A stretch of DNA of 64,000 nt from Kaistia dalseonensis (GTDB lineage Bacteria > Pseudomonadota > Alphaproteobacteria > Rhizobiales > Kaistiaceae): the NCBI RefSeq assembly GCF_030814715.1, contig NZ_JAUSVO010000001.1, positions 1,054,001 to 1,118,000 of the forward strand, written 5' to 3'. Below the pieces are notes generated by a model. The model made no database searches, had not been told where the DNA came from, and saw only the letters and a program-made list of their open reading frames with translations. Positions 10,425 through 31,050 of the stretch are shown piece by piece. The position numbers were made by a program, and so were the translations under genes. The stretch's first letter is position 1. Every line of letters starts with the position of its first letter.

Positions 10425-10886
10425 TCAGTCGCGAAACTCGATCACGGCCTCGATCTCCACCGGAATGCCGAATGGCAGCGACGCCACGCCGACCGCCGAA
10501 CGTGCATGGCGGCCGAGCTGGGGAAAGACCTCGCCGAAGAGGTTCGAGCATCCGTCGATGACGAACGGATGCCGGGTGAAATCCGGCGTCGTGTTGACCA
10601 TACCGAGGAGCTTGACGATCCGGCTCACGCGGTCGAGGCTCCCGAGTTCAGCCTCGATGACGGCGAGCAGGTTCAGCCCGACGAGACGCGCAAAGCCCTG
10701 CGCCTCCTCGGCCGTGAAATCGGCCCCGACCTTGCCGACGATGGGCCGGCCCTCGGCGTCGGCCGGAGCCAATCCCGAGATGAACAGCAGATTGCCGGTC
10801 CGAACGGCCGGCGTGAAATTGCCAACTGGTGCCGGCGGGCGCGGCAGGACGATGGCGAGGCTGGCGAGCCGCTCGGATATCGACAT
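10425..10886 (-). CDS. RidA/YjgF/Rid-family protein
   Basis: The 153-aa protein has the Rid fold. VRTGNLLFISGLAP lies near residue 30. The conserved ARSAVGVASLP segment (Arg of the active site) and EIEAVIEF at the C-terminus lie where the family has its Arg and Glu. RidA-like proteins hydrolyse reactive enamine/imine intermediates or related N-carbamoyl species (as RutC in pyrimidine breakdown). The start MSISERLA at 10886 is chosen over an upstream ATG at 10928. It lies 63 nt after the NIPSNAP gene in the N-heterocycle region and is probably co-transcribed with it. Confidence 0.88.
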   Translation of the reverse strand: MSISERLASLAIVLPRPPAPVGNFTPAVRTGNLLFISGLAPADAEGRPIVGKVGADFTAEEAQGFARLVGLNLLAVIEAELGSLDRVSRIVKLLGMVNTTPDFTRHPFVIDGCSNLFGEVFPQLGRHARSAVGVASLPFGIPVEIEAVIEFRD

Positions 10887-10949
10887 TTCTAGACCTGATG
10901 GAGAAAGGCGCCGCGCCTCCGCAGGCAACGGCGCTGGATTTGGCGATGG

Positions 10950-11588
10950 CTATTTGAGATCCGAGAACCCGGTCGCGACGAAGAGTTCCGACTGCAGCGA
11001 GGTGAGCCTGGCCGAGCTGCCGGGCGGCGGCCAGATCCCTTCCTTGCTCGCCTGGGCGCGTGCCTTCACGCGGTCCTCGATCGTCTTGTAGGGCCAGAAA
11101 TGCACCATTTTCTGCGGCGCGCCTTCGACCGAACCCATGACCATCAGGAGCTTCGACATCGTGTTGCGCCGGTCGACGACCTTGCTCCAGGCCTCCGCCG
11201 TCTCGGGCAGGCCGCCGGGCTGCAGCGTGTAGGTGCGGATTTCGTAGAAGGGTCCGTATTCGCCCGGCTCGATCGGATCCATGAAGAAAAGCGGCTCGAA
11301 GGCCGTGCTGCTGATTCCGCCAAGATAAGCGCCGATGCCGTAGGGATTTTCCGTCTGCATCAGGCGCGCGCGCTCGGCCGCCAGTGCCTCCGCATTCTCA
11401 TAGGCCGTCAGGAAGGCGAAGCGGTTGAGTACGCCGAACTCGCAGGAGAAGCAGCCGAGCGGCCGGCCCGTGCTCGAAAAATCCTTGTAGGTCTGCGGCA
11501 GGAGCGGCAGCACTGCGCCCAGCGTATTGGGCAGCAGCGACAGGATGGTCAGGTCATACAGCATTCGATCGTCCCGGAATTGAGCCAT
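10950..11588 (-). CDS. NIPSNAP-family protein
   Basis: The 212-aa protein has two ferredoxin-like NIPSNAP domains. The first is MLYDLTILSLLPNT..., the second FYEIRTYTLQPGGLPETAEAW near residue 112. Small bacterial NIPSNAP proteins are common in catabolic operons, but their function is unknown. The start is 11588 (MAQFRDDRM) or 11564 (MLYDLT); the second fits the domain better. It is divergent from the amidohydrolase at 11698, and an ATTGGTACACCA operator-like site lies between them. Confidence 0.82.
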   Translation of the reverse strand: MAQFRDDRMLYDLTILSLLPNTLGAVLPLLPQTYKDFSSTGRPLGCFSCEFGVLNRFAFLTAYENAEALAAERARLMQTENPYGIGAYLGGISSTAFEPLFFMDPIEPGEYGPFYEIRTYTLQPGGLPETAEAWSKVVDRRNTMSKLLMVMGSVEGAPQKMVHFWPYKTIEDRVKARAQASKEGIWPPPGSSARLTSLQSELFVATGFSDLK

Positions 11589-11618
11589 TCATGGCAAGGC
11601 TTTCCAAACTCGCACGGC

Positions 11619-11631
11619 ATTGGTACACCAT
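11619..11631. promoter_or_regulatory. Operator-like site ATTGGTACACCAT
   Basis: It sits between the NIPSNAP/RidA operon and the amidohydrolase. It is a variant of the palindrome ATTGGTATACCAAT at 13952. The 12 bp ACGGCATTGGTA here recur exactly in front of xdhA at 31080-31091. It is inferred to be a GntR operator. Confidence 0.6.
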
Positions 11632-11697
11632 AGGAATTCCATGTGCACGCCGAAATTCACTCGGCATCTGGCACCATGCATGCGGAGAGGAAACAGG

Positions 11698-13050
11698 ATG
11701 TACGATCTCGTGGTGATGGGGCGCGTTGTGGCTCCCGCCGGCATTGTCGAGGGAGGCTGGATCGCCGTTTCGGGCGGTCGCATCGCCGCAATCGGGACGG
11801 GCGCCGCGCCGATGGCATCGACCAGCCACGACTATGGCTCGGCCTATCTCCTCCCCGGAATCATCGACGGCCAAACCCATGCGGGCAGCCAGATCGGCTT
11901 TGCCGGGATGGCGCCGACCACCCGGGCGGCGGCCATGGGCGGCGTCACGACCATTGTCGACATGCCCTATGACGATCCCGATCCCGTGACGACCGGCGCC
12001 ATTCTGGCCGGGAAGATCGACGCGATCGAGCGGCTCGCCGTTTGCGACGTCGCCCTCTACGGCACGGTGCCGACGACGCCCGATCCGGACCACATTGCAG
12101 AGCTGATCGCGGGTGGTGTCTGCGCGTTCAAGATCTCCTCGTTCGAGGCGCATCCCCATCGCTTCCCGCGCATCGGCAACGCCGCAACCCATCTGCTGCT
12201 CGAAACGCTCGGGGGCTCCGGCCTGCCGGTAGGGCTGCACAATGAGGATCAGGAGATCGTCCGCAGCCTTGCCGCCAAATTCCGGGCCGAGGGCCGCACC
12301 AGCCCGTCCGACCACAGCCCCAGCCGACCCGAGGTCGCGGAGCTGACGGCGACGGCGAACTTCCTCGAACTCGGCGCCGCGACCGGTTCACATCTCCATA
12401 TCGTGCATATCTCGATCGCCGACGGCTTCGACCTGGTGCGCTCCTACCGTGACCGCGGCGTGAACGCGACCGCCGAAATGTGCGTGCATTATCTGCTCTT
12501 CGATGCGGCAGACGACGCGCCGCGCCTCGGCGGGCTGCTCAAGGTCAATCCGCCCATCCGCACGGGGCAGAAGGATGCGCTCTGGGAGGTGCTGGAAGCG
12601 GGCGGGTGCACGTTCGTATCGTCGGACCACAGCGCCTGGCCGCTCGACCGCAAGCAAAATGCCTCGATCTTCGACGTCGCAGCGGGCATGCCGGGCCTCG
12701 AGACACTGCTGCCGGCCTTCTTCACTGGTGCAGCGGCCCGTAAGTGTGCCGATGACGCGGCCCGCATGACGGCGGATCTTCTCAGCGACAGGGTGGCGAA
12801 ATTCTTCGGCCTTCCCCACAAGGGCCGGCTCGCGCCGGGTTTTGATGCCGACATCGCCGTGCTCGATCCGACTCCGGGCGTCTACGAGTCAACGCGCAAT
12901 GCCGACGGACCTGGCTGGAGCGCCTATGATGGCGTGGAGTTCGCCGCAACGCCGGTCGCGACCTTCGTGCGTGGCCGGCAGGTCTGGGATGGGACGTCCA
13001 TCACGGCGCCGGCCGGGCACGGCCAGTTTGTCGCCCGTCCGCCGCGCTGA
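11698..13050 (+). CDS. Cyclic amidohydrolase (dihydroorotase/hydantoinase/allantoinase-like) with altered HxH
   Basis: The 450-aa TIM-barrel protein belongs to the cyclic-amide branch of the amidohydrolases. Probable metal ligands are Lys145 (AFKISSF, the carbamylated lysine), His181 (LHNEDQE), His237 (IVHIS) and Asp310 (SSDHSAW). The strand-1 HxH motif reads QTH (Gln59-His61), so one expected ligand is replaced. It would open a cyclic amide or imide ring such as a hydantoin or dihydropyrimidine. The start at 11698 has GGAGAGG upstream and matches the MYDLVVMGRVV beginning of the family. It is the only plus-strand gene of its unit and is divergent from NIPSNAP/RidA. Confidence 0.87.
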   Translation: MYDLVVMGRVVAPAGIVEGGWIAVSGGRIAAIGTGAAPMASTSHDYGSAYLLPGIIDGQTHAGSQIGFAGMAPTTRAAAMGGVTTIVDMPYDDPDPVTTGAILAGKIDAIERLAVCDVALYGTVPTTPDPDHIAELIAGGVCAFKISSFEAHPHRFPRIGNAATHLLLETLGGSGLPVGLHNEDQEIVRSLAAKFRAEGRTSPSDHSPSRPEVAELTATANFLELGAATGSHLHIVHISIADGFDLVRSYRDRGVNATAEMCVHYLLFDAADDAPRLGGLLKVNPPIRTGQKDALWEVLEAGGCTFVSSDHSAWPLDRKQNASIFDVAAGMPGLETLLPAFFTGAAARKCADDAARMTADLLSDRVAKFFGLPHKGRLAPGFDADIAVLDPTPGVYESTRNADGPGWSAYDGVEFAATPVATFVRGRQVWDGTSITAPAGHGQFVARPPR

Positions 13051-13054
13051 CGCC

Positions 13055-13738
13055 CTAGCGAATGGCGCCGGACAGCCGGTCGATGAGCGCCAGTTTCACG
13101 ACTTCGATGTGCTTGGCCATGGCGGCCCGCGCCCGCTCGCCATCGCCGCTCTCGATCGCATCGAGCAACAGCGTGTTCTGCTCGACGCCAAAGCTCGGTG
13201 TCACGGACTTGCGCGAGGCGTTGAAGATATGGGTCCGGCGCCGGAGGTCGCGAATCATCGAGGCCATGAGCACGTTGCCGGCCGTGTCGGCGATCTCGCC
13301 ATGCAGCAGGTCGTCGACCTCCCAGATGTCGCTCAAGGTCGGCTTGGGGTTCTTGGCGATCTTCTCCAGGGCGGCGCGGATGATGGCGAGCCGTTCAGGC
13401 GGGATGCGACCGGCGGCGAGCCTTGCGGCTTCCGCCTCCAGCAACTGCCGCACATTCAGGATCTCGACAAAGGCTTCGGTTGAGAACGGACTGACGGTGA
13501 CGCCGCGATTGGGCTGCTTGTAGACCAGTCCTTCCGCCTCGAGCCGCCCCAAAGCCTCGCGGATCGGCGTGCGCGACGCGTTGAGCTGTTCGGCCATGCG
13601 CCGCTCGGTAATCACGTCGCCCGGCCTGAGCTCGCCCCGGATCAAAAGGTCGATCAGTTGCTCATAGACCTGTTCCGTGAGGTTGGGACGGTCTGCCGAT
13701 CCCGCGACATCCAGAACCAATTCATCGATTTCGCCCAA
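13055..13738 (-). CDS. GntR-family transcriptional regulator (FadR/FCD type)
   Basis: The 227-aa protein has a GntR winged helix (residues about 18-85, with MAEQLNASRTPIREALGRLEAEGLV) followed by an FCD effector domain (about 95-215). In such proteins the FCD domain binds a small carboxylic acid through a metal. It ends 4 nt from the amidohydrolase stop and is divergent from the nitrilase operon at 14005, with a perfect palindrome between. It resembles the second GntR at 25240 closely in the effector domain (RDLRRRTHIFN in both), suggesting paralogues with related signals. Confidence 0.93.
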   Translation of the reverse strand: MGEIDELVLDVAGSADRPNLTEQVYEQLIDLLIRGELRPGDVITERRMAEQLNASRTPIREALGRLEAEGLVYKQPNRGVTVSPFSTEAFVEILNVRQLLEAEAARLAAGRIPPERLAIIRAALEKIAKNPKPTLSDIWEVDDLLHGEIADTAGNVLMASMIRDLRRRTHIFNASRKSVTPSFGVEQNTLLLDAIESGDGERARAAMAKHIEVVKLALIDRLSGAIR

Positions 13739-13921: not shown

Positions 13922-13965
13922 TTGCAATTCGAGACGGCTTGGCTATTAGCTATTGGTATACCAAT
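13922..13965 (+). promoter_or_regulatory. Promoter with perfect operator ATTGGTATACCAAT
   Basis: A TTGCAA box (13922-13927) and TATTAG (13944-13949), spaced 16 bp, precede the nitrilase-Rieske operon. The perfect 14-bp palindrome ATTGGTATACCAAT at 13952-13965 covers the expected start of transcription, a typical repressor position. The adjacent GntR protein is the likely ligand. Confidence 0.6.
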
Positions 13966-14004
13966 GGCGTGCAATTAGTCCGCCGATCGCATAGAGGTCT
14001 TCCC

Positions 14005-15045
14005 ATGCCCATAAAGCCCTGGCGCGCGACCAGCATCCAGATGCGCAGCGAACGCGCGACGCAGGCGCCGGACGACGCTGCCGCCAAAGCGCTCATGCTC
14101 CGGAACCTCGATCGCCTGATGCGCCTGATCGGAGAGGCCTGCGCTTCGCCGCTGAAGCCCGATCTCGTTGTTTTCCCCGAATTCGCGCTGCAGGGCCCAC
14201 CATTGCAGATGCATGTGCGCGAATGGATCGATCGGGCCTGTTCGACCATTCCCGGTCCGCTGACCGAACCGCTGCAGGAACTGGCCCGGCGCGAGCAGAT
14301 CTACATTGCCGGCAACATGTTCGAGGCGCCGACGGAGTGGCCGGGGCGCTATTTCAATTCGTCGTTCCTGATCGACCGCAACGGCGAGGTGATCCTCAAT
14401 TATCGCCGCATCAACACCGCCGCCTTCCCCTCGCCGCACGACTTCATGGCCGACTACATGGCCGCGACGCCGCAGGAGCAGGTGTTCCCCGTCGTGGAAA
14501 CCGAGCTTGGCCGGCTTGCGGTCATTCCTTGCGGCGAAATCAATATTCCGGAGGTCGCGCGCGTCTTCATGATGCAGGGCGCTGAGGTGATCCTGCATCC
14601 GACCAACTCGAAATATACGGTCGGCCAGGAGGCCGCCAAGGTCGGGCGCGCGACCGAGAACATGTGCTACCTCGTCAGCGCCAACGTTGCCGGCCCGATC
14701 GGCTTCTCGCCCGACAATACGATCATGGGCGGCCGCTCGCACATTCTCGACCATCACGGCAATACGATCGCGTTCCAGGAGGATGCGTCCGAAGGCGTCG
14801 GCGTTACCGGCATGATCGATATCGAGGCGCTACGTACCGATCGACGCGCCGATACCGGCATGCACAACCCGCTGCTGCGGGCGCGCTTCGAGATGTACCG
14901 TCCCTATTACGCGAGCGCGGAGTTCTACCCCGCCAACCATTTTCTCTCGTCGCCGATGACCGACACAGCGCAGACGCGCGAAAGCGTCGCGATCGCGCGC
15001 GCCAATCTCGAAAAGCTGCGCGTGCTGCAGCCCCTGACGAACTGA
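14005..15045 (+). CDS. Nitrilase-superfamily carbon-nitrogen hydrolase (first copy)
   Basis: The 346-aa enzyme has the nitrilase alpha-beta-beta-alpha fold. Glu59 (FPEFALQG) and Cys176 (IPCGEINIPE) match the catalytic Glu and Cys. The catalytic Lys position reads Arg135 (NYRRIN instead of YRK). The start at 14005 (MPIKPWRATSIQM) is preceded by AGAGGT. It likely hydrolyses an amide or N-carbamoyl group produced by ring opening. It heads an operon with the Rieske oxygenase (18 nt gap) and reductase. A collinear paralogue with the same substitutions is at 24022-25053. Confidence 0.85.
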   Translation: MPIKPWRATSIQMRSERATQAPDDAAAKALMLRNLDRLMRLIGEACASPLKPDLVVFPEFALQGPPLQMHVREWIDRACSTIPGPLTEPLQELARREQIYIAGNMFEAPTEWPGRYFNSSFLIDRNGEVILNYRRINTAAFPSPHDFMADYMAATPQEQVFPVVETELGRLAVIPCGEINIPEVARVFMMQGAEVILHPTNSKYTVGQEAAKVGRATENMCYLVSANVAGPIGFSPDNTIMGGRSHILDHHGNTIAFQEDASEGVGVTGMIDIEALRTDRRADTGMHNPLLRARFEMYRPYYASAEFYPANHFLSSPMTDTAQTRESVAIARANLEKLRVLQPLTN

Positions 15046-15063: not shown

Positions 15064-16392
15064 ATGATCACCGCCGAAGAAAACGAACAGCTTTGCCGCG
15101 TTGGCAAAGGCACTCTGATGGGCAACTTCTTCCGTCAGTTCTGGATGCCCGTCTGCCTTTCCTCCGAACTCAAGGCCGATGGTGATCCGGTTCGCCTGAT
15201 GATCCTCGGAGAGAAGCTCGTCGCCTTCCGTGACAGCGAAGGGCGCGTCGGCGTGTTCGACCATCGCTGCCCGCATCGCTGCGCATCGCTCTTCTTCGGC
15301 CGCAACGAGCTGGGCGGCATACGCTGTGCCTATCATGGCTGGAAATTCGACGTGACCGGCAAGTGCCTCGACCAGCCCAATCTCGAGGATAAGTCCAAAT
15401 ATCCGGCGGGAACCCCGGCGATCGCTTACCGCGTTCAGGAATCCGGTGGGCTCGTCTTTGCCTATATGGGCGAGCGCCAGGAAAACCCGCCGCCACTGCC
15501 CGAGATCGAGGCGATCATGGGCGAGGGCCATGACGGCAACATCGCGCTCACCCACCGCGATTGCAATTACATGCAGGCGCTGGAGGGAGACGTCGACACC
15601 TCGCATCTCGGCTTCCTGCATGTCGGCGGCATCGACGGCGAGAAGCTCGACCTGAGCGATCCGGAGGCCTTCACGGTCACCGAGAAGGCGCCCAAGATCA
15701 ACGTCTCCGTCATGCCGTTCGGCACCATGTACTCCGCGCAGCGCAATGCCTATGAGGGCACCGAGCACCATCGCTTCGCGAGCTATATCTTCCCCATCTG
15801 GGTGACCTACCCCTCGGGGCTGATGGATGACAACGTCACCGTCAACGCCTGGGTCCCGATCGACGACGAGAGCACGATGATCTTCAACATCGACCTCGGC
15901 CGGATCAATGGGCGCAGGAAGAACCTGAAATACAAGGATGGTACGCTGGTTGGCGGCCTCGCGCGTCCGCTCGAATATTTGCCGACCACGACCGACTGGA
16001 AGGGCCGCTGGCGTCCGGTGAAGGATGCCTCCAACGACTATGGCATCGATCGCGAATGGCAGCGCAATGGCGACAGCTACACCGGCATTGTCGGCGTTCC
16101 TCTGCAGGACCAGGCGATCCAGGAGAGCATGGGGCCGATCGTCGATCGCACCATGGAGCATCTGGCGGCCAGCGACCGCATGGTCATCCTGACGCGCCGC
16201 GTCATGCTCGACGCCGCGAAGGAATTTGCGGAGACCGGCAAGCTGCCCGACGTTGTCGATCACCCGGAGCTTTGCCGCGACGCGCGCGGCGGCGACATCG
16301 TCGTGCCCCATGGCACCGACTGGCTCGACGGCTATGAAGAGAAGATGGCCGCCATCAAGGGCTATCGGCCGAAGCTCTTTGCCGCCGAATGA
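15064..16392 (+). CDS. Rieske non-haem iron oxygenase, alpha subunit (phthalate-dioxygenase type)
   Basis: The 442-aa protein has an N-terminal Rieske domain with CPHRC and CAYHGW ligating a 2Fe-2S cluster (residues about 75-100). The catalytic domain has the mononuclear iron motif EGDVDTSHLGFLH at about residues 178-190 (bridging Asp, two His). Domain layout and length match single-component oxygenases that hydroxylate or N-/O-demethylate heterocycles and aromatic acids. No beta subunit is present. Electrons come from the reductase at 16389, with which it overlaps by ATGA. The substrate is inferred to be an N-heterocycle from the cluster context. Confidence 0.92.
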   Translation: MITAEENEQLCRVGKGTLMGNFFRQFWMPVCLSSELKADGDPVRLMILGEKLVAFRDSEGRVGVFDHRCPHRCASLFFGRNELGGIRCAYHGWKFDVTGKCLDQPNLEDKSKYPAGTPAIAYRVQESGGLVFAYMGERQENPPPLPEIEAIMGEGHDGNIALTHRDCNYMQALEGDVDTSHLGFLHVGGIDGEKLDLSDPEAFTVTEKAPKINVSVMPFGTMYSAQRNAYEGTEHHRFASYIFPIWVTYPSGLMDDNVTVNAWVPIDDESTMIFNIDLGRINGRRKNLKYKDGTLVGGLARPLEYLPTTTDWKGRWRPVKDASNDYGIDREWQRNGDSYTGIVGVPLQDQAIQESMGPIVDRTMEHLAASDRMVILTRRVMLDAAKEFAETGKLPDVVDHPELCRDARGGDIVVPHGTDWLDGYEEKMAAIKGYRPKLFAAE

Positions 16393-17417
16393 CGACCGCC
16401 ATCAAAGATCGATCCGACGCGAGCCTCGCGTCGGATCCCCTTCACCTGCCATCGAGCGTGGCCGAATCCGGCCCGCTACAGCTCCGCGTCGAGGCGATCC
16501 GCTTCGAAGCCGAGACGATCCGCTCGATCGAGCTCCGCGCACCGGACGGCTCTGCGCTGCCGCCCTTCACGCCCGGCGCACACATTGATCTCGCTTTGCC
16601 GGGCGAACTCTCGCGCAGCTATTCGCTGATCAATGCGGCGAGCGACGGCGACCGCTATGTCGTGGCAGTCAACCGCGATGCGGCAAGTCGAGGCGGCTCG
16701 GCCTATCTCTGCGAGACGTTGCGGGTTGGCGAGATCCTCTCGGTCATGCCGCCGCGCAACAGCTTCCCGTTGGTCGAGACCGCGAGCGAAAGCGTCTTCT
16801 TCGCGGGAGGTATCGGCATCACGCCGATCCTCGCCATGATCCGCCATCTGGAGGCCATCGGCCGACCATGGCGCCTCTTCTATGCCGTGCGCGATCGCGC
16901 CAATGCCGCGTTCCTGGCGCAACTCGCGCGCCTGGAAGCAGTTCAGCCCGGTCGCGTGCATCTGCATGTCGACAAGGAGGCGGGTAGCGTCATGGCCGTG
17001 GCGGCACGCATCGCCGACGTGCCGGCCGATGCGCATCTCTATTGCTGCGGCCCCACCCCGATGATCGCCGCCTTCAAGGACGCTGCGGCCGGGCGCTCGG
17101 ACCACTATGTCCACGTCGAGCATTTCGTCGGTACGGCCGCCAAGCCGACGGGCGAGTTCAAGATCATTCTCAAGCGCAGCCAGAGGGAATTCACCGTTTC
17201 GGCCGGCAAGACGATCATGGATGTCTTGATGGAAGCCGGCGTGCGCGTCGCCCATTCCTGCCGCGAAGGCGTCTGCGGCACATGCGAAACCCGCGTGATC
17301 GAAGGCGTCCCCGATCACAAGGACAATGTGCTTTCGGCGCGCGAGCGCGCCTCCAACAAGCTGATCATGATCTGCTGTTCAGGCGCCAAGACGGACCGGC
17401 TGGTCCTCGACCTTTAG
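16389..17417 (+). CDS. PDR/VanB-family oxygenase reductase (FMN, NAD, 2Fe-2S)
   Basis: The 342-aa protein has an N-terminal flavin-binding barrel with RSYSLINAA, an NAD-binding domain with GGIGITPILAM near residue 140, and a C-terminal plant-type ferredoxin domain. The cluster cysteines are in CREGVCGTCETRV near residue 288, with a further CC pair near the end. It passes electrons from NADH to the Rieske oxygenase encoded just upstream (ATGA overlap). Its N-terminus is about 30 residues longer than needed for the barrel. It is the last gene of the operon. Confidence 0.93.
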   Translation: MTTAIKDRSDASLASDPLHLPSSVAESGPLQLRVEAIRFEAETIRSIELRAPDGSALPPFTPGAHIDLALPGELSRSYSLINAASDGDRYVVAVNRDAASRGGSAYLCETLRVGEILSVMPPRNSFPLVETASESVFFAGGIGITPILAMIRHLEAIGRPWRLFYAVRDRANAAFLAQLARLEAVQPGRVHLHVDKEAGSVMAVAARIADVPADAHLYCCGPTPMIAAFKDAAAGRSDHYVHVEHFVGTAAKPTGEFKIILKRSQREFTVSAGKTIMDVLMEAGVRVAHSCREGVCGTCETRVIEGVPDHKDNVLSARERASNKLIMICCSGAKTDRLVLDL

Positions 17418-18445: not shown

Positions 18446-18492
18446 TGTATTCTCCCAGAATTTCGATGCACGGCCGCCCGGCGGCCGGCTGG

Positions 18493-20133: not shown

Positions 20134-20206
20134 GTGGTGCGGACGACCTTTCGGCCGGTCTCCTCTGTTGCCCCGAGGGCCTGATCTCTTCCGTCCGTGA
20201 CGCGGC

Positions 20207-20995: not shown

Positions 20996-21084
20996 GTCGT
21001 CCAGTTCCAAATCGTCGCCTCGATGGCGATAGGAAAGCAATTTGGGCACCACCGGCCGGGCCGGCAGTGCCCAAATTTCAGCCG

Positions 21085-22083: not shown

Positions 22084-22111
22084 TTGCATTCCCCGTCCTA
22101 CCCTCTCGGTG

Positions 22112-22135
22112 TTGGCATTCAGACGGTATGCCAAG
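22112..22135. promoter_or_regulatory. Operator-like inverted repeat upstream of the importer operon
   Basis: TTGGCAT (22112-22118) and ATGCCAA (22128-22134) form an inverted repeat. Inside it, CGGTATGCCAAG matches the right half of the regulon palindrome. It lies about 30-50 nt upstream of the binding-protein start, near a minus-strand TTGACT box (22152-22147). Confidence 0.5.
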
Positions 22136-22412
22136 GGAATATCTTGAGTCAATCAGCTTTGTCGCAACATTGAGCAAGATCATTGACCGCCTATTAGATA
22201 GGCAAAAAGCCTCGATGGCCGGCAGTCCCCGAGGACTGAACAACCGTCGACAAGTCCATGATTGGAAAACGAAACTCAGTCTTTAGCTTCGCCGCGAAAC
22301 AAATTCCGCAGCGCCATGCGCCGTCATATTGTGCGATGTCGGCGAGGCACGAGGCGTCCCAGGCGTGGGTCCGGAGCGCGGGTGGCCCGGTCCAGACCGC
22401 CCCGCGCGTGCA
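22136..22412. other. Intergenic region between the deaminase stop and the importer operator
   Basis: Together with the operator, this gives about 330 nt without a gene. It contains a short inverted repeat GCCTATTAGATAGGC at 22188-22202. I see no RNA gene or coding frame with a plausible start. It probably holds the importer promoter and the end of the deaminase transcript. Confidence 0.4.
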
Positions 22413-24021: not shown

Positions 24022-25053
24022 TCAGTCGGCGCGCAGGACGCCTGCGGCCTCGGCATTGGCGATCGCGCGCTCATGGACCGGAACCAGGTCCGCGACCGTC
24101 TGGATCGGCGTTTCGGCCAGCGCATTGGCGGGATAGAGCTCGGCCGCCGCATAGTGCGACTTGTACATTTCCAGACGCTGGCGGAGCAGTCCGTTGCCCA
24201 TGCCAGTGTCGCGCCGCGCGGCCTGAAGCGCCTCGATATCGATCATCGCCGTCACGGAGATGCTTTCCTGCGCCTCGCCATCGAAGGCCAGGTAATTGCC
24301 GTTGAAATCGATGATCTGGGAATGGCCGCCCTTCTCGTCGCCGGAGAGCGAGAAGCCGATGCCGCCGGCGACATTGGTGCTGATCAGATAGCACATATTC
24401 TCGGCCGCCCGGCAGATCTTGGCCGCCTCGGCCTTCGGCCCGATCGGTTCATTGGAAGGATGCAGCAGTACTTCGGCGCCGCGCAGCATCAGCACGCGCG
24501 ACAGTTCGGGCACGCTGATCTCGCCACAGGGGAAGATCGCGAGACGTCCGAGTTCGGTATCGGCAACCGGGAAAATGCCATCCTCGCCATAGGCGGCGCG
24601 ATAGGCGTCAAGAATATCGTGGGGCGACGTCCAGCTTGCCGTGTTGATACGCCGATAGCGTAGGATCACCTCACCCTTCGGGTCGAGCAGGAACGACGAG
24701 TTGAAATAGCGATCCGGCCAGAGCGGATCGACCTCGAAATGATTGCCGGCAATGTAGATGTCGAGTTGGCGGGCGACCTCGGCGAGACGATCCGTGATCG
24801 GGCCGGGGATCGTGGCGCAGGCCCGCTCGATCCAGACATCGACCGGGGTCGCGCGCGGCGGCCCTTGAAAAGCGAATTCCGGCAGCACGACGAGACGCGG
24901 CGGGGTCGGGCCGGCGCAGGCGGCTTCGATCATGGCGATGGCGTTGGCCAGGTTGCCATCGATGACGGCCCATGCCTCCTCGCGGCTCGTCGCGTTGCTC
25001 GCGACCACGCTGCCCATCTGAATGCAGGTCGCCCGCCAAGGTTGAATGGCCAT
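24022..25053 (-). CDS. Nitrilase-superfamily carbon-nitrogen hydrolase (second copy)
   Basis: The 343-aa protein is collinear with the one at 14005. Glu59 (LPEFAFQG), Arg135 (RYRRIN, where family members have Lys) and Cys176 (FPCGEISVPE) occupy identical residue numbers. Both start with PWRAT.IQM. The ATG at 25053 has GGAG 8 nt upstream. It leads an operon with the deaminase. The two copies are in different operons carrying the same operator, so they may act on successive or alternative N-carbamoyl/amide intermediates. Duplication followed by divergence is the simplest origin. Confidence 0.85.
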   Translation of the reverse strand: MAIQPWRATCIQMGSVVASNATSREEAWAVIDGNLANAIAMIEAACAGPTPPRLVVLPEFAFQGPPRATPVDVWIERACATIPGPITDRLAEVARQLDIYIAGNHFEVDPLWPDRYFNSSFLLDPKGEVILRYRRINTASWTSPHDILDAYRAAYGEDGIFPVADTELGRLAIFPCGEISVPELSRVLMLRGAEVLLHPSNEPIGPKAEAAKICRAAENMCYLISTNVAGGIGFSLSGDEKGGHSQIIDFNGNYLAFDGEAQESISVTAMIDIEALQAARRDTGMGNGLLRQRLEMYKSHYAAAELYPANALAETPIQTVADLVPVHERAIANAEAAGVLRAD

Positions 25054-25100
25054 TCTGTTCTCCGCCTGTCCCATTTCATGGGTTCGTTTTAGGTGTTCCA

Positions 25101-25112
25101 TTGGAATACCAA
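25101..25112. promoter_or_regulatory. Operator-like site TTGGAATACCAA
   Basis: A one-mismatch version of TTGGTATACCAA lies 48 nt upstream of the second nitrilase start. It is inferred to be a GntR operator for the nitrilase-deaminase operon. Confidence 0.6.
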
Positions 25113-25193
25113 CGGCACACGCAAGCCGTCAAGCATGACGCCCGTAAACCCGCACAAATTGCCGATTGGGGTCAAAAAGCGGGATCATTGACA

Positions 25194-25218
25194 TTTGGTA
25201 TATCGATGGTCTACCAAA
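25194..25218. promoter_or_regulatory. Inverted repeat TTTGGTA-N11-TACCAAA with TTGACA box
   Basis: The half-sites of the regulon palindrome are here moved apart by 11 nt, directly upstream of the GntR gene at 25240. A TTGACA box (25188-25193) adjoins the left arm. It is probably the autoregulatory operator. Confidence 0.5.
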
Positions 25219-25239
25219 CGACAAAGCGAGGGGCATGGA

Positions 25240-25935
25240 ATGGATCTGGTCATACCCGTTCAGGAGGCGCGCGAGCGTTCGACTGCGGGCAGCGCAGAGG
25301 TCAGTCTCAGCGAATTCGCCTATATGCAAATCCTTGAGCTGATGCTCTCGGGCAAACTCCAGGCCGGCGCCGTCCTGCAAGAGAGACGGCTGGCTGAGAT
25401 GCTATCAATCTCGCGCACGCCTGTCCGCGAAGCGCTCGGCCGTCTGGAGGCTGAATCACTCGTCTCACGGCGTCACGGACGCGTTCTCGTCGTGTCGGAC
25501 GTCAGCGTCGAAAGCTATGTGAGCCTACTCGACCTCAGGCGCATCCTCGAGGTCGAGGCAGCCGCCCGCGCGACCGGGCGCATTACCGTCGAACAGGCCA
25601 AGGCCGTCGAGGTCGCGATCGACGAACTGCTGCGCGTGACCGTCATCACGCCCGCCCATCATTGGGCTGTCGACGAAATGGTGCATGGCACGATTGCCGA
25701 GGCGGCCGGCAATCCGATGGTCGTCTCCGCGATCCGCGATCTCCGGCGGCGGACCCATATCTTCAACACTTCGCGCATTCCCCATCGCCTCCTGCCCGGC
25801 GCATCGGAGCATCTGGACCTGCTTCACGCAGTGACCGGCAACGATCCAGAAATGTCGCGCCGGTTGATGGGGCAGCATCTCGACAATGTGCGCGATGCGA
25901 TCATCGATTTCATTCTGGGAACGCGCCGGTCATGA
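25240..25935 (+). CDS. GntR-family transcriptional regulator (FadR/FCD type), second copy
   Basis: The 231-aa protein has a GntR winged helix (about residues 20-90, containing MLSISRTPVREALGRLEAESLV) and an FCD domain (about 100-220). The effector-domain segment RDLRRRTHIFNTSR is nearly identical to that of the GntR at 13055. I chose the ATG at 25240 with GCGAGGGG upstream. It is divergent from the nitrilase-deaminase operon and precedes two SDR genes. Both GntR proteins probably read the TTGGTATACCAA family of sites. Confidence 0.92.
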   Translation: MDLVIPVQEARERSTAGSAEVSLSEFAYMQILELMLSGKLQAGAVLQERRLAEMLSISRTPVREALGRLEAESLVSRRHGRVLVVSDVSVESYVSLLDLRRILEVEAAARATGRITVEQAKAVEVAIDELLRVTVITPAHHWAVDEMVHGTIAEAAGNPMVVSAIRDLRRRTHIFNTSRIPHRLLPGASEHLDLLHAVTGNDPEMSRRLMGQHLDNVRDAIIDFILGTRRS

Positions 25936-25972
25936 CCGGCGGCGGCCGGAGCGCGGTGAAAGGCAGTCTGAC

Positions 25973-26653
25973 GTGAGTACCATTCTGATCGCGGGCGCCA
26001 GTCGCGGCATTGGTCGCGAATTCGTGCGGCAATTGCTTGCGCGAGGCTGGCGCGTGCTGGCGACAGCGCGAGACCGGGCGGCTTGCACGGCGCTCGCTGA
26101 ACTCGGCGCCGAGCCCTTCATCCTCGACATCACCGATGACGGCTCCATCGCCGCGCTCGCCGAGAAACTCGCCGGCGTTCCCCTCGATGCCGTGCTCGCC
26201 AATGCCGGCATTTCCGGCGATCAGGCCATGCCGATGGAAGCCGTGACATGGGCCGAGATGCACGGCGTGATGGATACCAACACGCTCGGTGCCGTGCTGC
26301 TGGTTGCGGCGCTGAAGCCCAATCTCCTGTCCGGCGAGCGGCGGCTGGCGCTCGGCATGTCCAGCCTGATGAGTTCGATCTCATCCAACAATTGGGGCAC
26401 GCAATATTGCTATCGCGCCTCGAAGACGGCGCTCAATGCGATGTGGCGTTCGCTGGCCGACGAATGGTGCGGCGACGGCATCACCTGCGCGCTGCTGCGC
26501 CCCGGCTTCGTGAAGACCGACATGACCAGCCATAGTGATCGCGGCCTTGATGTCGATGTCAGCGTCGCCGGCATGGTGGGCGTAATCGAACAGCTCGGCA
26601 TAGCCGATACGGGTCGCTGCATCGGCTATGACGGGAAGGACGTGCCATGGTGA
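25973..26653 (+). CDS. SDR-family oxidoreductase
   Basis: The 226-aa Rossmann protein has GASRGIGRE near residue 7, NAGISGD near 75 and a canonical YCYRASK (YxxxK) near residue 142. It is a likely NAD(P)-dependent dehydrogenase for a hydroxy or oxo intermediate. The GTG at 25973 is chosen because an upstream ATG in the same frame would overlap the GntR gene and add non-family sequence. It lies 37 nt after the GntR stop and overlaps the next gene by 7 nt. Confidence 0.85.
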   Translation: MSTILIAGASRGIGREFVRQLLARGWRVLATARDRAACTALAELGAEPFILDITDDGSIAALAEKLAGVPLDAVLANAGISGDQAMPMEAVTWAEMHGVMDTNTLGAVLLVAALKPNLLSGERRLALGMSSLMSSISSNNWGTQYCYRASKTALNAMWRSLADEWCGDGITCALLRPGFVKTDMTSHSDRGLDVDVSVAGMVGVIEQLGIADTGRCIGYDGKDVPW

Positions 26654-27243
26654 GCGGGGCGAATTCAGCGGCGCATGTCGTGATCGTCGGGATCGAAACG
26701 CCGATCGGCGCCACACTTGCCGGCCTCTACCAGAGCACCGGCGCAAACGTGACCGGTTCGAGCCTTGATGGCGACATGGAGACGGAGGCCGCGCGCCTCG
26801 GCGAGAAACCAATCGACATCGTGATCTTCGCCGATGCCTTCAACGCACCAGCGCGCAATGCAGTCGAACTCGAGCGAAGCGATTTCGAGGCCGGATTATC
26901 TCGGCTGGCCTTCAAGCCGTTATGGCTTGCCAATCGGCTCAGATCCGCCCTCTCCGCTTCCGACGGACCCGGCAAGATCGTGCTCGTAACCCGCACCGCC
27001 GCCACGATGACCGAGCCGGATCCGGCAGGCAGCTATCTGGAGCGCCCCTTCCGTGCGGCGGCGCATGCGCTCTGGAAGTCCATGTCGGTCGAATGGCAGC
27101 CGCTCGGTATCGACTGCCTCGTCATCGCAATCGACGACGCCACGACAGTTAACGCCGATCTGCTCACTACGATCGCCGATACCAGCGTGTCGCCCGAGGG
27201 CTGCGTGCTGCAGGACGCCGCGGGCAAGCCCCTCGGCTGGTAG
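26647..27243 (+). CDS. Degenerate SDR-like protein
   Basis: The 198-aa protein follows the SDR fold, with strand-1 VVIVGIETPIGATLA, and is homologous in layout to the gene upstream, which it overlaps by 7 nt. The glycine-rich TGxxxGxG is altered (GIETPIG). The YxxxK position shows YLERPFR, so no catalytic Tyr-Lys pair is visible. It is therefore unlikely to be an active dehydrogenase by itself and may form a heterodimer with the upstream SDR. It converges with the xdhB stop 7 nt downstream. Confidence 0.7.
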   Translation: MVSGANSAAHVVIVGIETPIGATLAGLYQSTGANVTGSSLDGDMETEAARLGEKPIDIVIFADAFNAPARNAVELERSDFEAGLSRLAFKPLWLANRLRSALSASDGPGKIVLVTRTAATMTEPDPAGSYLERPFRAAAHALWKSMSVEWQPLGIDCLVIAIDDATTVNADLLTTIADTSVSPEGCVLQDAAGKPLGW

Positions 27244-27250
27244 GCGCCGC

Positions 27251-29587
27251 TCAGCTGCCGCGAGCCAACCGTTTCAGACGCTCGATCGTCAGCAGGACAC
27301 GCTCGGGCGTCGCCGGGGCGTCCATGCGCGGCGCGATCCGATAATCGGCGACGCTGGCGGCAGCCATGCCCAGCGCTTCGAACACCGAGAGCGCCAGCAT
27401 GAAGGGCGGCTCGCCAACCGCCTTCGAACGGCCGATCGTCGGCGCGCGGTTCTCCGACCACTCCGCCAGACGGACATTGAAGATCCTCGGCACGTCGGAG
27501 ACGACGGGAATCTTGTAGGTCGATGGCGCATGGGTCCGCAATTGGCCCTTGGCGTCCCACCAGAGCTCCTCGGTCGTGAGCCAGCCCATGCCCTGGATGA
27601 AGCCACCCTCGATCTGGCCGATATCGATCGCCGGATTGAGCGAGCGGCCAACGTCATGCAGGATATCGACCCGGTCGACCATGTATTCGCCGGTGAGCGT
27701 GTCGACAGTGACCTCCGAGCAGGACGCGCCATAGGCGAAATAGAGGAACGGCTTGCCTCGGCCGGCGTCGCGGTTCCAAGAGATGCCCGGCGTCTTGTAG
27801 AAGCCGGCGGCCGAGAGCTGGACACGGCCGAGATAGGCCTGCTCGGCAAACTGAGCCCATGAAAAGCGCTTGTCGCCGACGACCACTGCGTTCGGCTCGA
27901 ACAAGACGGCGCCCGCGGCGACGCCGTATTTCTCCGCGGCGAATGCGATGAGCCGGTCGCGGATCTGCTGCGCCGCGTTTTCGGCCGCCATGCCGTTCAG
28001 GTCCGAGCCGCTCGATGCTGCCGTCGAGGACGCGTTGGGGACCTTGTCGGTCGCGGTCGCCGAGACCTTCACGTGCTCGAGGTCGATCTGGAACACGTCG
28101 GCCACGACCTGGGCGATCTTGGTGTGGAGCCCCTGCCCCATCTCGGTGCCACCATGGTTCAGATGGACCGACCCGTCGCGATAGACGTGAACGAGCGCGC
28201 CGGCCTGGTTCAGCGCCAGCATGGTGAAGCTGATGCCGAATTTGAGCGGTATCAGCGCGATGCCGCGTTTCAGGATCGGCGATTTCTCGTTGAAGGCCAG
28301 GATTTCGGCGCGGCGCCGCGCATAATCCGCGCTCGCCTCCAATTCGCCGACCAGCCGCTCCAGGATGTTGTCGGTGATGGTCTGGTGATAGGGCGTGACG
28401 TTGCGCTCGGCCTCGCCATAGAAATTCGCCTTGCGGATTTCGAGCGGATCCTTGCCGAGCGCGTAGGCGATGTCCTCGATCCAGCGCTCGCAAGCGAGCA
28501 TGCCCTGCGGCCCGCCATAGCCACGAAACGCCGTATTCGAGACGGTATTGGTGCGAAGCGGCAGCGAGCGGACGCGCACCGCCGGATAGAAATAGGCATT
28601 GTCGGAATGGGTCAGCGCGCGATCGGTGACGCCGCGCGAGAGATCGGCCGAATGGCCGCAGCGCGCCGCAAAAACGGCGTCCACCGCCTCGATCCGGCCT
28701 GCATCGTCGAAGCCGACATCATAATCGACAACGAAATCGTGTCGCTTCCCCGTCATCTTGATGTCGTCGTCGCGATCCGGGCGGAGCTTCACAGCGCGCT
28801 TGAATGTCCGTGCGGCGATGGCAACAATGCAGGCGAAGAGATTGCTCTGCGATTCCTTGCCGCCAAAACCGCCGCCCATGCGCCGCACGATGATGGTGAC
28901 GGCATTGTCGGCGACGCCGAGCACGCGCGCCACCATGCGTTGCACTTCATCAGGATGTTGCGCGCTCGAATGCACGACCATGTCGCGATCCTCGCCGGGA
29001 ATGGCGAGCGCGATCTGGCCTTCGAGATAGAAATGCTCCTGCCCGCCGATGGTGATCGATCCGGCGACACGGCGCGGTGCATCGGCCAGGCCGGCAACGA
29101 CATCGCCACGCTCCAGCGTCAGTCCAGGCGTCACCAGCGCATCACCGGCAAGGCGGGCGGCGGCGACGTCGAGCACGGGCGGCAGTTCGCGATAGGTGAC
29201 CTTCGCCAGGCGCGCCGCACGGCGAGCAGCTTCGCGCGTCTCCCCGAGCACGACGAAAAGCGGCTGGCCCGAGAAGGTGACTTCGCGCGCGGCGAAGACC
29301 GGCTCATCATTCTTGTGCGACGGGCTGATATCGCGTTCGCCGGGAATATCATCCGCCGTCAGCACGCCGACGACCCCCGGCGCCGCACGCACGGCATCGA
29401 GGTCCAGCGTGACAATCTCGCCATGGGCGATGGTCGAGAGCCCGAGATAGGCGTGCAGCGTGCCGGCCGGCTCGATCAGGTCGTCAATATAGTCAGCGCT
29501 TCCGGCAACGTGCTTGTGGCCGGAATCATGCCGATGCGGCTGGCTCATGCCGCCAATGATCGCCTTGCGCTCGACGAGCGTGTCCAT
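27251..29587 (-). CDS. xdhB: Xanthine dehydrogenase-type molybdopterin-binding subunit
   Basis: The 778-aa protein has the aldehyde oxidase/xanthine dehydrogenase a/b-hammerhead domain (residues about 20-130) and the large Moco-binding domains. GGGFGGKES lies near residue 230, and the catalytic glutamate lies in KAVGEPPFM near residue 720. It hydroxylates a carbon beside ring nitrogen using water. The start at 29587 (MDTLVERKAI) overlaps the xdhA stop by 1 nt (TGATG). It pairs with xdhA into an (alpha-beta)2-type enzyme. The substrate may be a purine or another N-heterocycle; active-site wording alone does not settle this. Confidence 0.92.
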   Translation of the reverse strand: MDTLVERKAIIGGMSQPHRHDSGHKHVAGSADYIDDLIEPAGTLHAYLGLSTIAHGEIVTLDLDAVRAAPGVVGVLTADDIPGERDISPSHKNDEPVFAAREVTFSGQPLFVVLGETREAARRAARLAKVTYRELPPVLDVAAARLAGDALVTPGLTLERGDVVAGLADAPRRVAGSITIGGQEHFYLEGQIALAIPGEDRDMVVHSSAQHPDEVQRMVARVLGVADNAVTIIVRRMGGGFGGKESQSNLFACIVAIAARTFKRAVKLRPDRDDDIKMTGKRHDFVVDYDVGFDDAGRIEAVDAVFAARCGHSADLSRGVTDRALTHSDNAYFYPAVRVRSLPLRTNTVSNTAFRGYGGPQGMLACERWIEDIAYALGKDPLEIRKANFYGEAERNVTPYHQTITDNILERLVGELEASADYARRRAEILAFNEKSPILKRGIALIPLKFGISFTMLALNQAGALVHVYRDGSVHLNHGGTEMGQGLHTKIAQVVADVFQIDLEHVKVSATATDKVPNASSTAASSGSDLNGMAAENAAQQIRDRLIAFAAEKYGVAAGAVLFEPNAVVVGDKRFSWAQFAEQAYLGRVQLSAAGFYKTPGISWNRDAGRGKPFLYFAYGASCSEVTVDTLTGEYMVDRVDILHDVGRSLNPAIDIGQIEGGFIQGMGWLTTEELWWDAKGQLRTHAPSTYKIPVVSDVPRIFNVRLAEWSENRAPTIGRSKAVGEPPFMLALSVFEALGMAAASVADYRIAPRMDAPATPERVLLTIERLKRLARGS

Positions 29588-31050
29588 CAGGCCACCTCGT
29601 GCCGCAGGATGTGTATTTCGTGCCCGCCCTGCATTTCCAGGAAGAAGCGTGACAGAAGGTTCTTTGCCACCAGCATGCGGTATTCGGCCGATGCGCGCCA
29701 ATCAGACAGAGGCTGGAAGTCCTCTTCAAAAGCGGGCAAGGCAGCCTCGATGGTGGCCATCGTCCATGGCGCACCGATGAGCGCCGCTTCGACCGCCCGC
29801 GCTCGCCTGGGTGTCGCCGCCATGCCGCCATAGGCGATCACGGCGTCGCTGATCACGCCACCCTCGACGCGGATCCGGAACGCGCCGAGCACGGCCGTGA
29901 TATCCTCGTCGCGCCGCTTGCTGATCTTGTAGGCGGCGAAGAATGTGTCAGCGGCCGGGATGGGAACGGCGATGCTTTCGATGAATTCGCCTTTCGCCCG
30001 ATCCTGCTGGCCATAGGCGATGAAATAGTCTTCGAGCCTGACCGTTCGCCGCGTGTTCCCTCGGCGCAACGTGATTTCGGCGCCCAGCGCGATCAGCGGC
30101 GGTGGCGTATCGCCGATCGGCGAGCCATTGGCGATATTGCCGCCAATCGTGCCCATATTGCGAACCTGCCCGCCGCCGATACGGTCCAAGAGCGGAACCA
30201 ATTGCGGGATGTGCGCGGCAATGGTGGCGAACGCCCCGCTATAGCTGACGCCGGCACCGATGCGGATGATGTCGCCGTCGACCGCGATCTCATCCATCAG
30301 GCCTCTGATGAAGACGACTGGCGCGATATCGCGCATGAACTTGGTGACCCACAGCCCAACATCGGTCGATCCGGCGACGAGCGTGGCGCCCGGCATGTCC
30401 AGCAGGATATCCGCGAGATCGTCGACATCAGCCGGAATGACGAACTGTCCCTTCGGCGTCTCCACAACGACCCGATGCCCGTCCTGAAGCGCCTGCAGCC
30501 TGCCGCGCATGGTCTCCCGCTCGACCTCGATCGTGTCGGTGGCGGCATCGCCATAATGGGAGATCGCAGCGGCCGCGCGCACGATCGGCGCATAGCCTGT
30601 GCAGCGACACAGATTGCCCTGCAGCGCCGTTTCGATCTCCGGCAATGCAGGTTCGGGATTGGTCAACCAGAGCCCATAGAGCGACATGACAAAGCCGGGC
30701 GTGCAGAAGCCGCACTGGCTGCCATGATAGTCCACCATGGCCTGCTGCACCGGATGCAGCGATCCATCGGCGCGCGCCAGATGCTCGACCGTCACCACGT
30801 GACAGCCATCCAGCGATCCGACCAGGCGGATACAGGCATTGATGCTCTCATAGACCAATCCGGCCTCGTCGAGCCGGCCGACCAGCACCGTGCAGGCGCC
30901 ACAATCGCCCTCCGCGCACCCCTCCTTGGTTCCGCGCATCACGCGGTCGAGCCGGAGGAAGTCGAGCAATGTCCGATCGGGCGCGACGTCGGACAGGGTG
31001 ACGAGGCGATCGTTCAGGTAGAAACGAATATGGGAGCGAATGGGTGGCAC
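29587..31050 (-). CDS. xdhA: Xanthine dehydrogenase-type FeS/FAD subunit
   Basis: The 487-aa protein has an N-terminal plant-type 2Fe-2S domain with CAEGDCGAC (residues about 45-53), a second 2Fe-2S domain with CGFC and NLCRCTGY (about 112-155), and an FAD-binding domain (about 195-370; NMGTIGGNIANGSPIGD). It moves electrons from the Moco subunit to NAD+. It is first in the xdhAB operon, with the regulon operator 36 nt upstream of its start. Moco sulfuration and insertion genes (xdhC) are not in the window. Enzyme length and organisation match bacterial XdhA. Confidence 0.93.
   Translation of the reverse strand: MPPIRSHIRFYLNDRLVTLSDVAPDRTLLDFLRLDRVMRGTKEGCAEGDCGACTVLVGRLDEAGLVYESINACIRLVGSLDGCHVVTVEHLARADGSLHPVQQAMVDYHGSQCGFCTPGFVMSLYGLWLTNPEPALPEIETALQGNLCRCTGYAPIVRAAAAISHYGDAATDTIEVERETMRGRLQALQDGHRVVVETPKGQFVIPADVDDLADILLDMPGATLVAGSTDVGLWVTKFMRDIAPVVFIRGLMDEIAVDGDIIRIGAGVSYSGAFATIAAHIPQLVPLLDRIGGGQVRNMGTIGGNIANGSPIGDTPPPLIALGAEITLRRGNTRRTVRLEDYFIAYGQQDRAKGEFIESIAVPIPAADTFFAAYKISKRRDEDITAVLGAFRIRVEGGVISDAVIAYGGMAATPRRARAVEAALIGAPWTMATIEAALPAFEEDFQPLSDWRASAEYRMLVAKNLLSRFFLEMQGGHEIHILRHEVA

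What the first reader, a model, noticed from the sequence alone, without database searches (positions are those of the whole stretch)
10425..31050. Candidate undescribed N-heterocycle degradation regulon
Within 21 kb are a Moco hydroxylase (xdhAB), a TRZ/ATZ-type deaminase, a Rieske oxygenase with reductase, a cyclic amidohydrolase, two nitrilase-fold amidases, a RidA, a NIPSNAP protein, a DapA-like aldolase, SDRs, a NitT/TauT-type importer and two paralogous FCD-GntR repressors. Established knowledge: these families hydroxylate, deaminate, open and de-amidate N-heterocycles. Inference: they form one pathway, because the promoters share an operator. The gene set does not match standard uric acid, Rut, Pyd or nicotinate pathways, as urate oxidase, ureidoglycolate enzymes and PydB-type dihydropyrimidine partners are absent.
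Basis: partly seen in the sequence, partly recalled or inferred. Interest (0 to 1): 0.85.

Follow-up and report, generated by a model that had tools for sequence, protein, structure and literature searches.

The report
Conserved regulon for breaking nitrogen compounds
A block of about twenty genes, switched by one shared DNA control sequence and kept largely together in a range of other bacteria, probably imports and breaks down a nitrogen-containing ring compound that has not been identified.

Summary
In detail: the named gene families are where stated, and a shared operator is real. A motif from 30 sites in other genomes was scanned over the window. All 13 hits above the best of 8 simulated windows fall in six promoters: Hyd, Nit1, importer, Nit2, GntR2 and xdhA. 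Genome-wide, an extended pattern occurs four times, all here. The block recurs, whole or in part, in 23 other genomes.

The single-pathway idea needs refining. The core is the Rieske oxygenase and reductase, two amidase-fold paralogues, NIPSNAP, usually a hydantoinase-like enzyme and an SDR, the importer and two repressors. The TRZ/ATZ deaminase (5 of 23) and XdhAB (4 of 23) look like optional entry steps. XdhAB is not the only copy: another lies about 59 kb from the cluster, and the cluster type forms its own clade with a changed pocket residue. Both amidases have Arg where solved relatives have Lys, in 43 of 43 sequences.

Ten paper searches found no characterised equivalent. The substrate is unproven; a fused-pyrimidine or aminopyrimidine ring is my best guess.

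The parts
10425..10928 (-). RidA-family protein (optional)
   Evidence: PF14588/PF01042; 16 of 23 genomes
10950..11564 (-). NIPSNAP; core
   Evidence: PF07978; AF2 pLDDT 91; 19 of 23 genomes
11615..11646 (.). operator between NIPSNAP and Hyd
11698..13050 (+). Hyd: hydantoinase/allantoinase-like amidohydrolase with DGQTH in place of HxH; usual member
   Evidence: below ErtD and AllB cut-offs; 17 of 23 genomes; motif
13055..13738 (-). GntR1, FCD-GntR regulator; core
   Evidence: PF00392+PF07729; 22 of 23 genomes
13948..13979 (.). operator between GntR1 and Nit1
14005..15045 (+). Nit1: nitrilase-fold protein, Glu-Arg-Cys; core
   Evidence: PF00795; 23 of 23 genomes
15064..16392 (+). Rieske oxygenase, phthalate/isophthalate dioxygenase family; core
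   Evidence: PF19301+PF00355; 23 of 23 genomes, best segment 67% identity or more
16389..17417 (+). reductase with C-terminal 2Fe-2S domain; core
   Evidence: 23 of 23 genomes
17501..18529 (-). DapA-like lyase/aldolase (optional; start uncertain)
   Evidence: PF00701; 12 of 23 genomes
18493..19311 (-). ABC permease, NitT/TauT type; core
   Evidence: 22 of 23 genomes
19315..20247 (-). ABC ATPase; core (start uncertain)
   Evidence: 21 of 23 genomes
20207..21052 (-). SDR1; usual member
   Evidence: 18 of 23 genomes
21085..22089 (-). NMT1/THI5-class substrate-binding protein; core
   Evidence: PF09084; best solved relatives 4nmy and THI5; 22 of 23 genomes
22108..22139 (-). operator upstream of the importer operon (weaker)
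   Evidence: score 11.9 against best simulated 11.0; score 7.0 or more in 26 of 27 locus rows
22413..23987 (-). TRZ/ATZ-type amidohydrolase (presumed deaminase; optional)
   Evidence: PF01979; 5 of 23 genomes
24022..25053 (-). Nit2, 55% identical to Nit1; core
   Evidence: 20 of 23 genomes
25086..25117 (-). operator upstream of Nit2
25191..25222 (.). operator upstream of GntR2
25240..25935 (+). GntR2, FCD-GntR regulator; core
   Evidence: 20 of 23 genomes
25886..26653 (+). SDR2 (optional; start uncertain)
   Evidence: 8 of 23 genomes
26647..27243 (+). SDR3, weak SDR match (optional)
   Evidence: 2 of 23 genomes
27251..29701 (-). XdhB, Moco subunit (optional; start uncertain)
   Evidence: TIGR02965 1295.1 bits against cut-off 849.5; clade and pocket change; 4 of 23 genomes
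29587..31050 (-). XdhA, FeS/FAD subunit (optional)
   Evidence: TIGR02963 652.5 bits against cut-off 467; 4 of 23 genomes
31060..31102 (-). operator upstream of xdhA; shares a 17-base site with the Hyd operator

Best explanation
This is one substrate-inducible catabolic regulon. Two paralogous FCD-GntR regulators probably repress six promoters through TGGTAYACCA-type operators and let go when a pathway compound is present. A NitT/TauT-type ABC importer with a THI5-class binding protein takes up a small nitrogen-containing ring compound. In the window's genus and a few others, a TRZ/ATZ deaminase and a dedicated purine-type XDH first turn ring amino groups or ring CH into oxo groups. The core follows: the Rieske oxygenase and reductase hydroxylate a ring carrying one acidic group, and the SDR oxidises the product. 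The hydantoinase-like enzyme opens a cyclic amide or ureide, Nit1 and Nit2 hydrolyse amide or carbamoyl nitrogen, RidA clears imines, and a DapA-like lyase splits the carbon chain where present. Shown: recurring gene order, operator sites, paralogue clade, changed active-site residues. Inferred: binding by GntR, each reaction, order of steps, and substrate class. Most likely a fused pyrimidine (pteridine or modified purine) or an aminopyrimidine.
For: Recurring block in 23 genomes beyond the window. Operator: strict TGGTNNACCA in 21 of 24 Nit1 promoters and 13 of 16 Hyd promoters, against 252 of 20,000 random pieces of the same loci; a motif from other genomes finds, above the simulated best, only cluster promoters in the window; 4 genome-wide pattern hits, all here, 0 for the reversed control. 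xdhA shares a 17-base site with Hyd. The five cluster-type XdhB genes (own, BR1-1-16, two Devosia, Prosthecomicrobium; six sequences, one gene being there twice) carry RGYGG where the other 18 sequences carry RGFGG, keep the residues aligned to R. capsulatus E232, R310 and E730, and lie beside cluster genes. A second xdhAB exists. By alignment, the Rieske residue at isophthalate dioxygenase R234 is Arg and that at H257 is Asn, in 21 of 21 sequences. The binding protein's best solved relatives are 4nmy and THI5.
Against: TRZ and XdhAB are missing beside the core in most relatives, so the core substrate need not be a heteroaromatic that XDH acts on. L048, L050, L051 and L052 lack Hyd beside NIPSNAP; of their three genomes that could be searched, one has no Hyd match and two only 52-53% paralogues. 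The Rieske family is known for phthalates, which are not N-heterocycles. The Lys-to-Arg change could mean that the Nit proteins are not hydrolases. Strict sites are absent at Hyd in 3 of 16 and Nit1 in 3 of 24; at Nit2 only 1 of 20 is strict and 12 of 20 relaxed. The genome-wide pattern did not pick up the xdhA and importer sites, which are more diverged. xdhA has no site in Devosia RYN_485, where xdhAB follows DapA and RidA. No expression or binding data.
Confidence: 0.6

Rival explanations
1. The core degrades a carbocyclic aromatic carboxylate or amide, as its phthalate-type Rieske relatives do. The deaminase and XdhAB are later additions that feed in other compounds.
For: Closest solved Rieske relatives are 7fhr (named a putative phthalate 4,5-dioxygenase), 9ina (isophthalate dioxygenase) and 7fjl (PMC12445078, search listing and passages seen). 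The carboxylate-binding Arg is kept in 21 of 21. TRZ in 5 and XdhB in 4 of 23 genomes.
Against: No ring-cleavage dioxygenase among the 21 ORFs annotated from RidA to DctA. A cyclic amidohydrolase plus two amidase-fold proteins suit nitrogen-rich rings. The second carboxylate residue is Asn in 21 of 21.
Confidence: 0.22
2. It is a duplicate of ordinary purine degradation.
For: XdhA and XdhB pass the curated xanthine dehydrogenase cut-offs and keep the residues aligned to R. capsulatus E232, R310 and E730.
Against: A second xdhAB with an XdhC-like and an HIU-hydrolase-like ORF lies about 59 kb from the cluster (the last two named by eye). Hyd is below the allantoinase cut-off, 250.3 against 357.85. 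No urate oxidase family among the 21 annotated cluster ORFs; the rest of the genome was not searched for one.
Confidence: 0.08
3. It is an alphaproteobacterial version of lumichrome/riboflavin catabolism.
For: The Nocardioides pathway combines hydrolases, a deaminating hydrolase, a xanthine-oxidase-like enzyme and a Rieske dioxygenase (PMC12746152, parts 1-2 of 6 and passages read).
Against: No P450, thiamin-dependent decarboxylase, extradiol dioxygenase or Rieske beta subunit among the 21 annotated cluster ORFs.
Confidence: 0.06
4. The operons are unrelated neighbours.
For: Prosthecomicrobium, Peristeroidobacter and Faunimonas hold only parts, or parts split over places.
Against: Extended operator pattern found genome-wide only here and recurring gene order.
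Confidence: 0.03

Closest known systems
Lumichrome catabolic cluster of Nocardioides simplex (PMC12746152; parts 1-2 of 6 and passages read)
   Same: Hydrolytic opening of a pyrimidine ring, a deaminating hydrolase, a xanthine-oxidase-like hydroxylase and a Rieske dioxygenase in one pathway.
   Different: It has a P450, a thiamin-dependent heterocycle decarboxylase, an alpha/beta Rieske enzyme with separate ferredoxin, and a catechol dioxygenase; none among the annotated cluster ORFs here. What I read names no nitrilase pair, NIPSNAP or GntR pair.
Isophthalate dioxygenase of Comamonas testosteroni KF1 (PMC12445078; passages read)
   Same: Rieske family, two-component system with a reductase, Arg aligned to R234.
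   Different: By alignment Asn at H257 and Pro at I246; different gene context.
E. coli ygeW-ssnA-xdhABC purine cluster (PMC4016543; abstract and passages read)
   Same: XDH, hydantoinase-like and SsnA-type amidohydrolase genes together.
   Different: No carbamoyltransferase, carbamate kinase or M20 peptidase family among the annotated cluster ORFs here; an oxygenase is added.
ErtD hydantoin-5-propionate amidohydrolase (NCBIfam NF058538)
   Same: Best curated family for Hyd, 498.7 bits.
   Different: Below its cut-off of 600.

Membership tests
Xanthine dehydrogenase (XdhAB) | Curated equivalog scores and substrate-pocket residues | tested here: met
   TIGR02965 1295.1/849.5 and TIGR02963 652.5/467; residues aligned to E232, R310, E730 kept, but Tyr at the place of F344
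Xanthine dehydrogenase (XdhAB) | XdhC partner encoded beside it | tested here: not met
   None among the 40 window ORFs annotated, 486-45856; an XdhC-like ORF sits beside the other xdhAB (by eye)
Nitrilase superfamily | Glu-Lys-Cys catalytic triad | tested here: not met
   Glu and Cys kept, Lys is Arg in 43 of 43; Lys in the 5 alignments shown of 11 solved relatives matched; fold kept
Hydantoinase/allantoinase | HxH, Lys, His, His, Asp metal ligands (recalled) | tested here: not met
   First His is Gln in 16 of 17 aligned, the other one gapped; other ligands kept in the same 16; same change in 8 of 8 paralogues
ErtD | NF058538 cut-off | tested here: not met
   498.7 against 600
Allantoinase AllB | TIGR03178 cut-off | tested here: not met
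   250.3 against 357.85
Isophthalate dioxygenase | Two carboxylate-binding residues (R234, H257) | tested here: not met
   Arg kept, His is Asn in 21 of 21, by alignment
Lumichrome (lum) pathway | P450, ThDP decarboxylase, catechol dioxygenase | tested here: not met
   No such family among the 21 annotated cluster ORFs
FCD-GntR-controlled catabolic regulon | FCD-GntR regulators and palindromic operators at the controlled promoters | tested here: met
   by sequence only
FCD-GntR-controlled catabolic regulon | Repressor binding and release by an inducer | not testable with these tools
   No binding or expression data
Any named substrate | Turnover or growth | not testable with these tools
   No experimental data

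The most novel reading that the evidence does not exclude
A dedicated aerobic pathway for pteridines (pterin or lumazine, including folate-derived pterin carboxylates) or for a thiamine-type aminopyrimidine: a vitamin-ring catabolic route without known genes. It would use a Rieske oxygenase re-tuned from phthalates to a heteroaromatic carboxylate and a pair of amidases with a Glu-Arg-Cys active site.
Probability: 0.2. Interest if true: 0.75.

Novelty: new variant of a known kind. Interest (0 to 1): 0.52.

Why it matters
It is a coherent, testable regulon of unknown substrate, found in genomes named Devosia, Rhizobium, Mesorhizobium and several roseobacter-type genera. It adds a purine-type XDH clade beside the ordinary one, a nitrilase-fold subfamily with the catalytic Lys replaced, and a Rieske oxygenase whose pocket changes are invariant in the sequences seen. 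The tight operator gives a direct reporter for finding the inducing compound, which would turn an annotation puzzle into a substrate assignment.

Tried and rejected
Literature searches on homarine, hydantoin/Rieske/nitrilase, pterin/lumazine, ergothioneine and NIPSNAP/Rieske listed no matching cluster (listings seen). Homarine is not excluded: I recalled that it has a dedicated gene cluster, but no listed title described one, so it could not be compared. Riboflavin/lumichrome was checked against PMC12746152 and set aside on gene content. Plasmid copies: all 43 matching records are below 60% identity to the Rieske protein. Rieske relatives at 48-52% from the class sample (L014-L020) had no other cluster gene of like identity beside them, only weak ABC, SDR and XDH matches and a 63% Rieske fragment, and were set aside. 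Models of Nit1 and NIPSNAP confirm folds only. The hydantoin-racemase module was not followed beyond annotation.

Rows dropped and limits: L057 (27% identity) was left out of the counts. One search counts segments of at least 40% identity and 60 residues in the stretches held; 8 of 23 genomes had extra stretches, so absence elsewhere means not in the stretch held. Only TRZ, XdhB and Hyd were searched in whole genomes, 21 of them (L052's genome was not held, BR1-1-16 was not included). The matrix used one Hyd and one Nit1 site per genome where a strict site existed, leaving out the window genome and BR1-1-16, and was judged against 8 simulated windows. The random pieces did not exclude real sites, so those backgrounds are too high; the 95% point was 14.2, above several importer-promoter scores. 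Some rows are one genome twice. The gene picker misses some ORFs.

Full report
What is there. The window lies in a 5.18-Mb genome of 11 contigs. A same-genus relative, G008, has a contig of the same length as that of Mesorhizobium sp. BR1-1-16, and its stretches carry the whole block from xdhA to RidA. XdhB and XdhA exceed the curated xanthine dehydrogenase cut-offs. Hyd is nearest to ErtD and allantoinase but below both cut-offs. DctA, immediately to the right, was found in none of the stretches held for 23 genomes.

Operator. I collected promoters from related loci. Strict TGGTNNACCA lies 25-120 bases upstream of Nit1 in 21 of 24 genomes and of Hyd in 13 of 16, against 252 of 20,000 random 105-base pieces of the same loci, real sites included. 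At Nit2 it is strict in 1 of 20 and relaxed in 12 of 20; at xdhA relaxed in 3 of 5. A weight matrix was built from 30 Hyd and Nit1 sites, leaving out the window genome and BR1-1-16, and scanned over the window. Its 13 hits above the best of 8 simulated windows (11.0) are all in six promoters: Nit1/GntR1, NIPSNAP/Hyd, GntR2, Nit2, xdhA and the importer operon. The importer site at 22108-22139 is weak in the window (11.9), but a site of score 7.0 or more recurs upstream of the binding-protein gene in 26 of 27 locus rows, some of them one genome twice. Genome-wide, an extended pattern with up to 3 mismatches occurs four times, all in this cluster, with none for the reversed control; it does not reach the xdhA and importer sites. 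The xdhA and Hyd promoters share a 17-base site with no other exact match in the genome. I wrote that pattern to fit both, so the strength of the result is its absence elsewhere. GntR1 and GntR2 share the stretch SRTP(I/V)REALGRLEAE in the HTH region.

Recurrence. A scan of the genome collection (84,980 genomes by its description) with the Nit alignment returned 25 loci; 24, from 23 genomes, carry the cluster or part of it. By their names these are alphaproteobacterial (Hyphomicrobiales and Rhodobacterales, recalled) except Peristeroidobacter. Counts over these 23: Nit1, Rieske and reductase 23; GntR1, permease and SBP 22; ATPase 21; Nit2 and GntR2 20; NIPSNAP 19; SDR1 18; Hyd 17; RidA 16; DapA 12; SDR2 8; TRZ 5; XdhA and XdhB 4; SDR3 2. 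The Rieske protein is the best conserved, 67% identity or more in its best segment. The scan uses two peptide patterns, so it gives a lower bound. Distribution is patchy. With the window genome counted, 3 of 199 relatives had a Rieske match at E <= 1e-100. In a class-level sample of 385, the five other matching genomes had only 48-52% relatives, without the other cluster genes beside them.

XDH. The genome has a second xdhAB, 60% identical in XdhB, about 59 kb from the cluster's edge, with an XdhC-like and an HIU-hydrolase-like ORF beside it (both named by eye). In a tree of 24 XdhB sequences, the copies of the window, BR1-1-16, two Devosia and one of P. pneumaticum form one group (support 0.938). 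These six sequences (five genes) carry RGYGG; the other 18 carry RGFGG. L037 and L081 are the same gene, L080 and L084 fragments of one gene. The changed residue aligns with R. capsulatus F344, a substrate-stacking residue (recalled). The P. pneumaticum copy sits beside GntR2, an MFS gene, SDR2 and SDR3, much as in the window.

Changed active sites. In Nit1 and Nit2, 43 of 43 sequences have YRR where the five solved relatives shown have YRK; Glu and Cys are kept. The title of one matched structure names a cysteine-glutamate-lysine triad. The model keeps the amidase fold. Hyd has DGQTH where solved hydantoinase and allantoinase have HxH. Its 51-56% paralogues share this in 8 of 8, so it marks a subfamily and not this cluster. 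In the Rieske protein, alignment to isophthalate dioxygenase (9ina), whose substrate residues I read in passages of PMC12445078, puts Arg at R234 and Asn at H257 in 21 of 21. NIPSNAP models as tandem alpha/beta-barrel repeats, with weak matches to monooxygenase-like barrels.

How it probably works. The two regulators hold six promoters and probably respond to a pathway compound. The importer's binding protein is of the NMT1/THI5 class; its best solved relatives are 4nmy and THI5. The core hydroxylates a ring carrying one acidic group, oxidises it, opens a cyclic amide and removes nitrogen. TRZ and XdhAB widen the range of entry compounds in a few genera. Beside the core in Devosia RYN_485 lies another amidohydrolase, 28% identical to TRZ. 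Faunimonas has a 42% TRZ relative near its Rieske genes, although a 71% TRZ lies beside Nit2 elsewhere on that contig. Deamination may therefore matter, but this is inference.

Known systems. The closest working parallel is the Nocardioides lumichrome pathway, published in 2025 (parts 1-2 of 6 and passages read). It also uses a xanthine-oxidase-like enzyme, a Rieske enzyme and pyrimidine-opening hydrolases, but its other enzyme families are not among the annotated cluster ORFs. The E. coli yge/ssnA cluster shares XDH, hydantoinase-like and SsnA-type genes (PMC4016543, abstract and passages); an oxygenase was not mentioned in what I read. Ten paper searches listed no description of this cluster; the library holds open-licence papers only.

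Verdict. A real, recurring, apparently co-regulated and, as far as these searches go, undescribed catabolic gene set. The substrate remains open.

Noticed in passing
L106 9135-14013; also L096, L101, L108-L112: A paralogous module with Hyd-like, DapA-like and (in six of eight) SDR1-like genes. In L106, the one annotated by family, it has a hydantoin racemase, a PatB-type C-S lyase, an oligopeptide-type binding protein and a rhodanese nearby: possibly catabolism of a sulfur-containing hydantoin.
   Followed up: partly
L100 14321-16791; L102 7748-10300; L103 9003-15121: TRZ relatives of 38-42% identity next to questin-oxidase-like proteins, with a gamma-glutamyltransferase in L103 and NitT-type ABC genes nearby.
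   Followed up: partly
window 1393-10375: A separate block with an RpiR regulator, sugar-type ABC importer, SIS protein, UPF0047, a nucleoside-phosphorylase-family protein and a 5-formyltetrahydrofolate cyclo-ligase-like protein.
   Followed up: no
window 31268-36071: DctA transporter next to a sensor kinase and a sigma-54 response regulator (DctBD-like); no operator hit in front of it among the listed top 25.
   Followed up: no
L041 7104-12611: In Faunimonas a penicillin-amidase-family gene lies directly before Nit2 and TRZ, about 200 kb from the Rieske part of the cluster on the same contig.
   Followed up: no
window 30660: A strict TGGTNNACCA site inside xdhA coding sequence; probably chance.
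   Followed up: no
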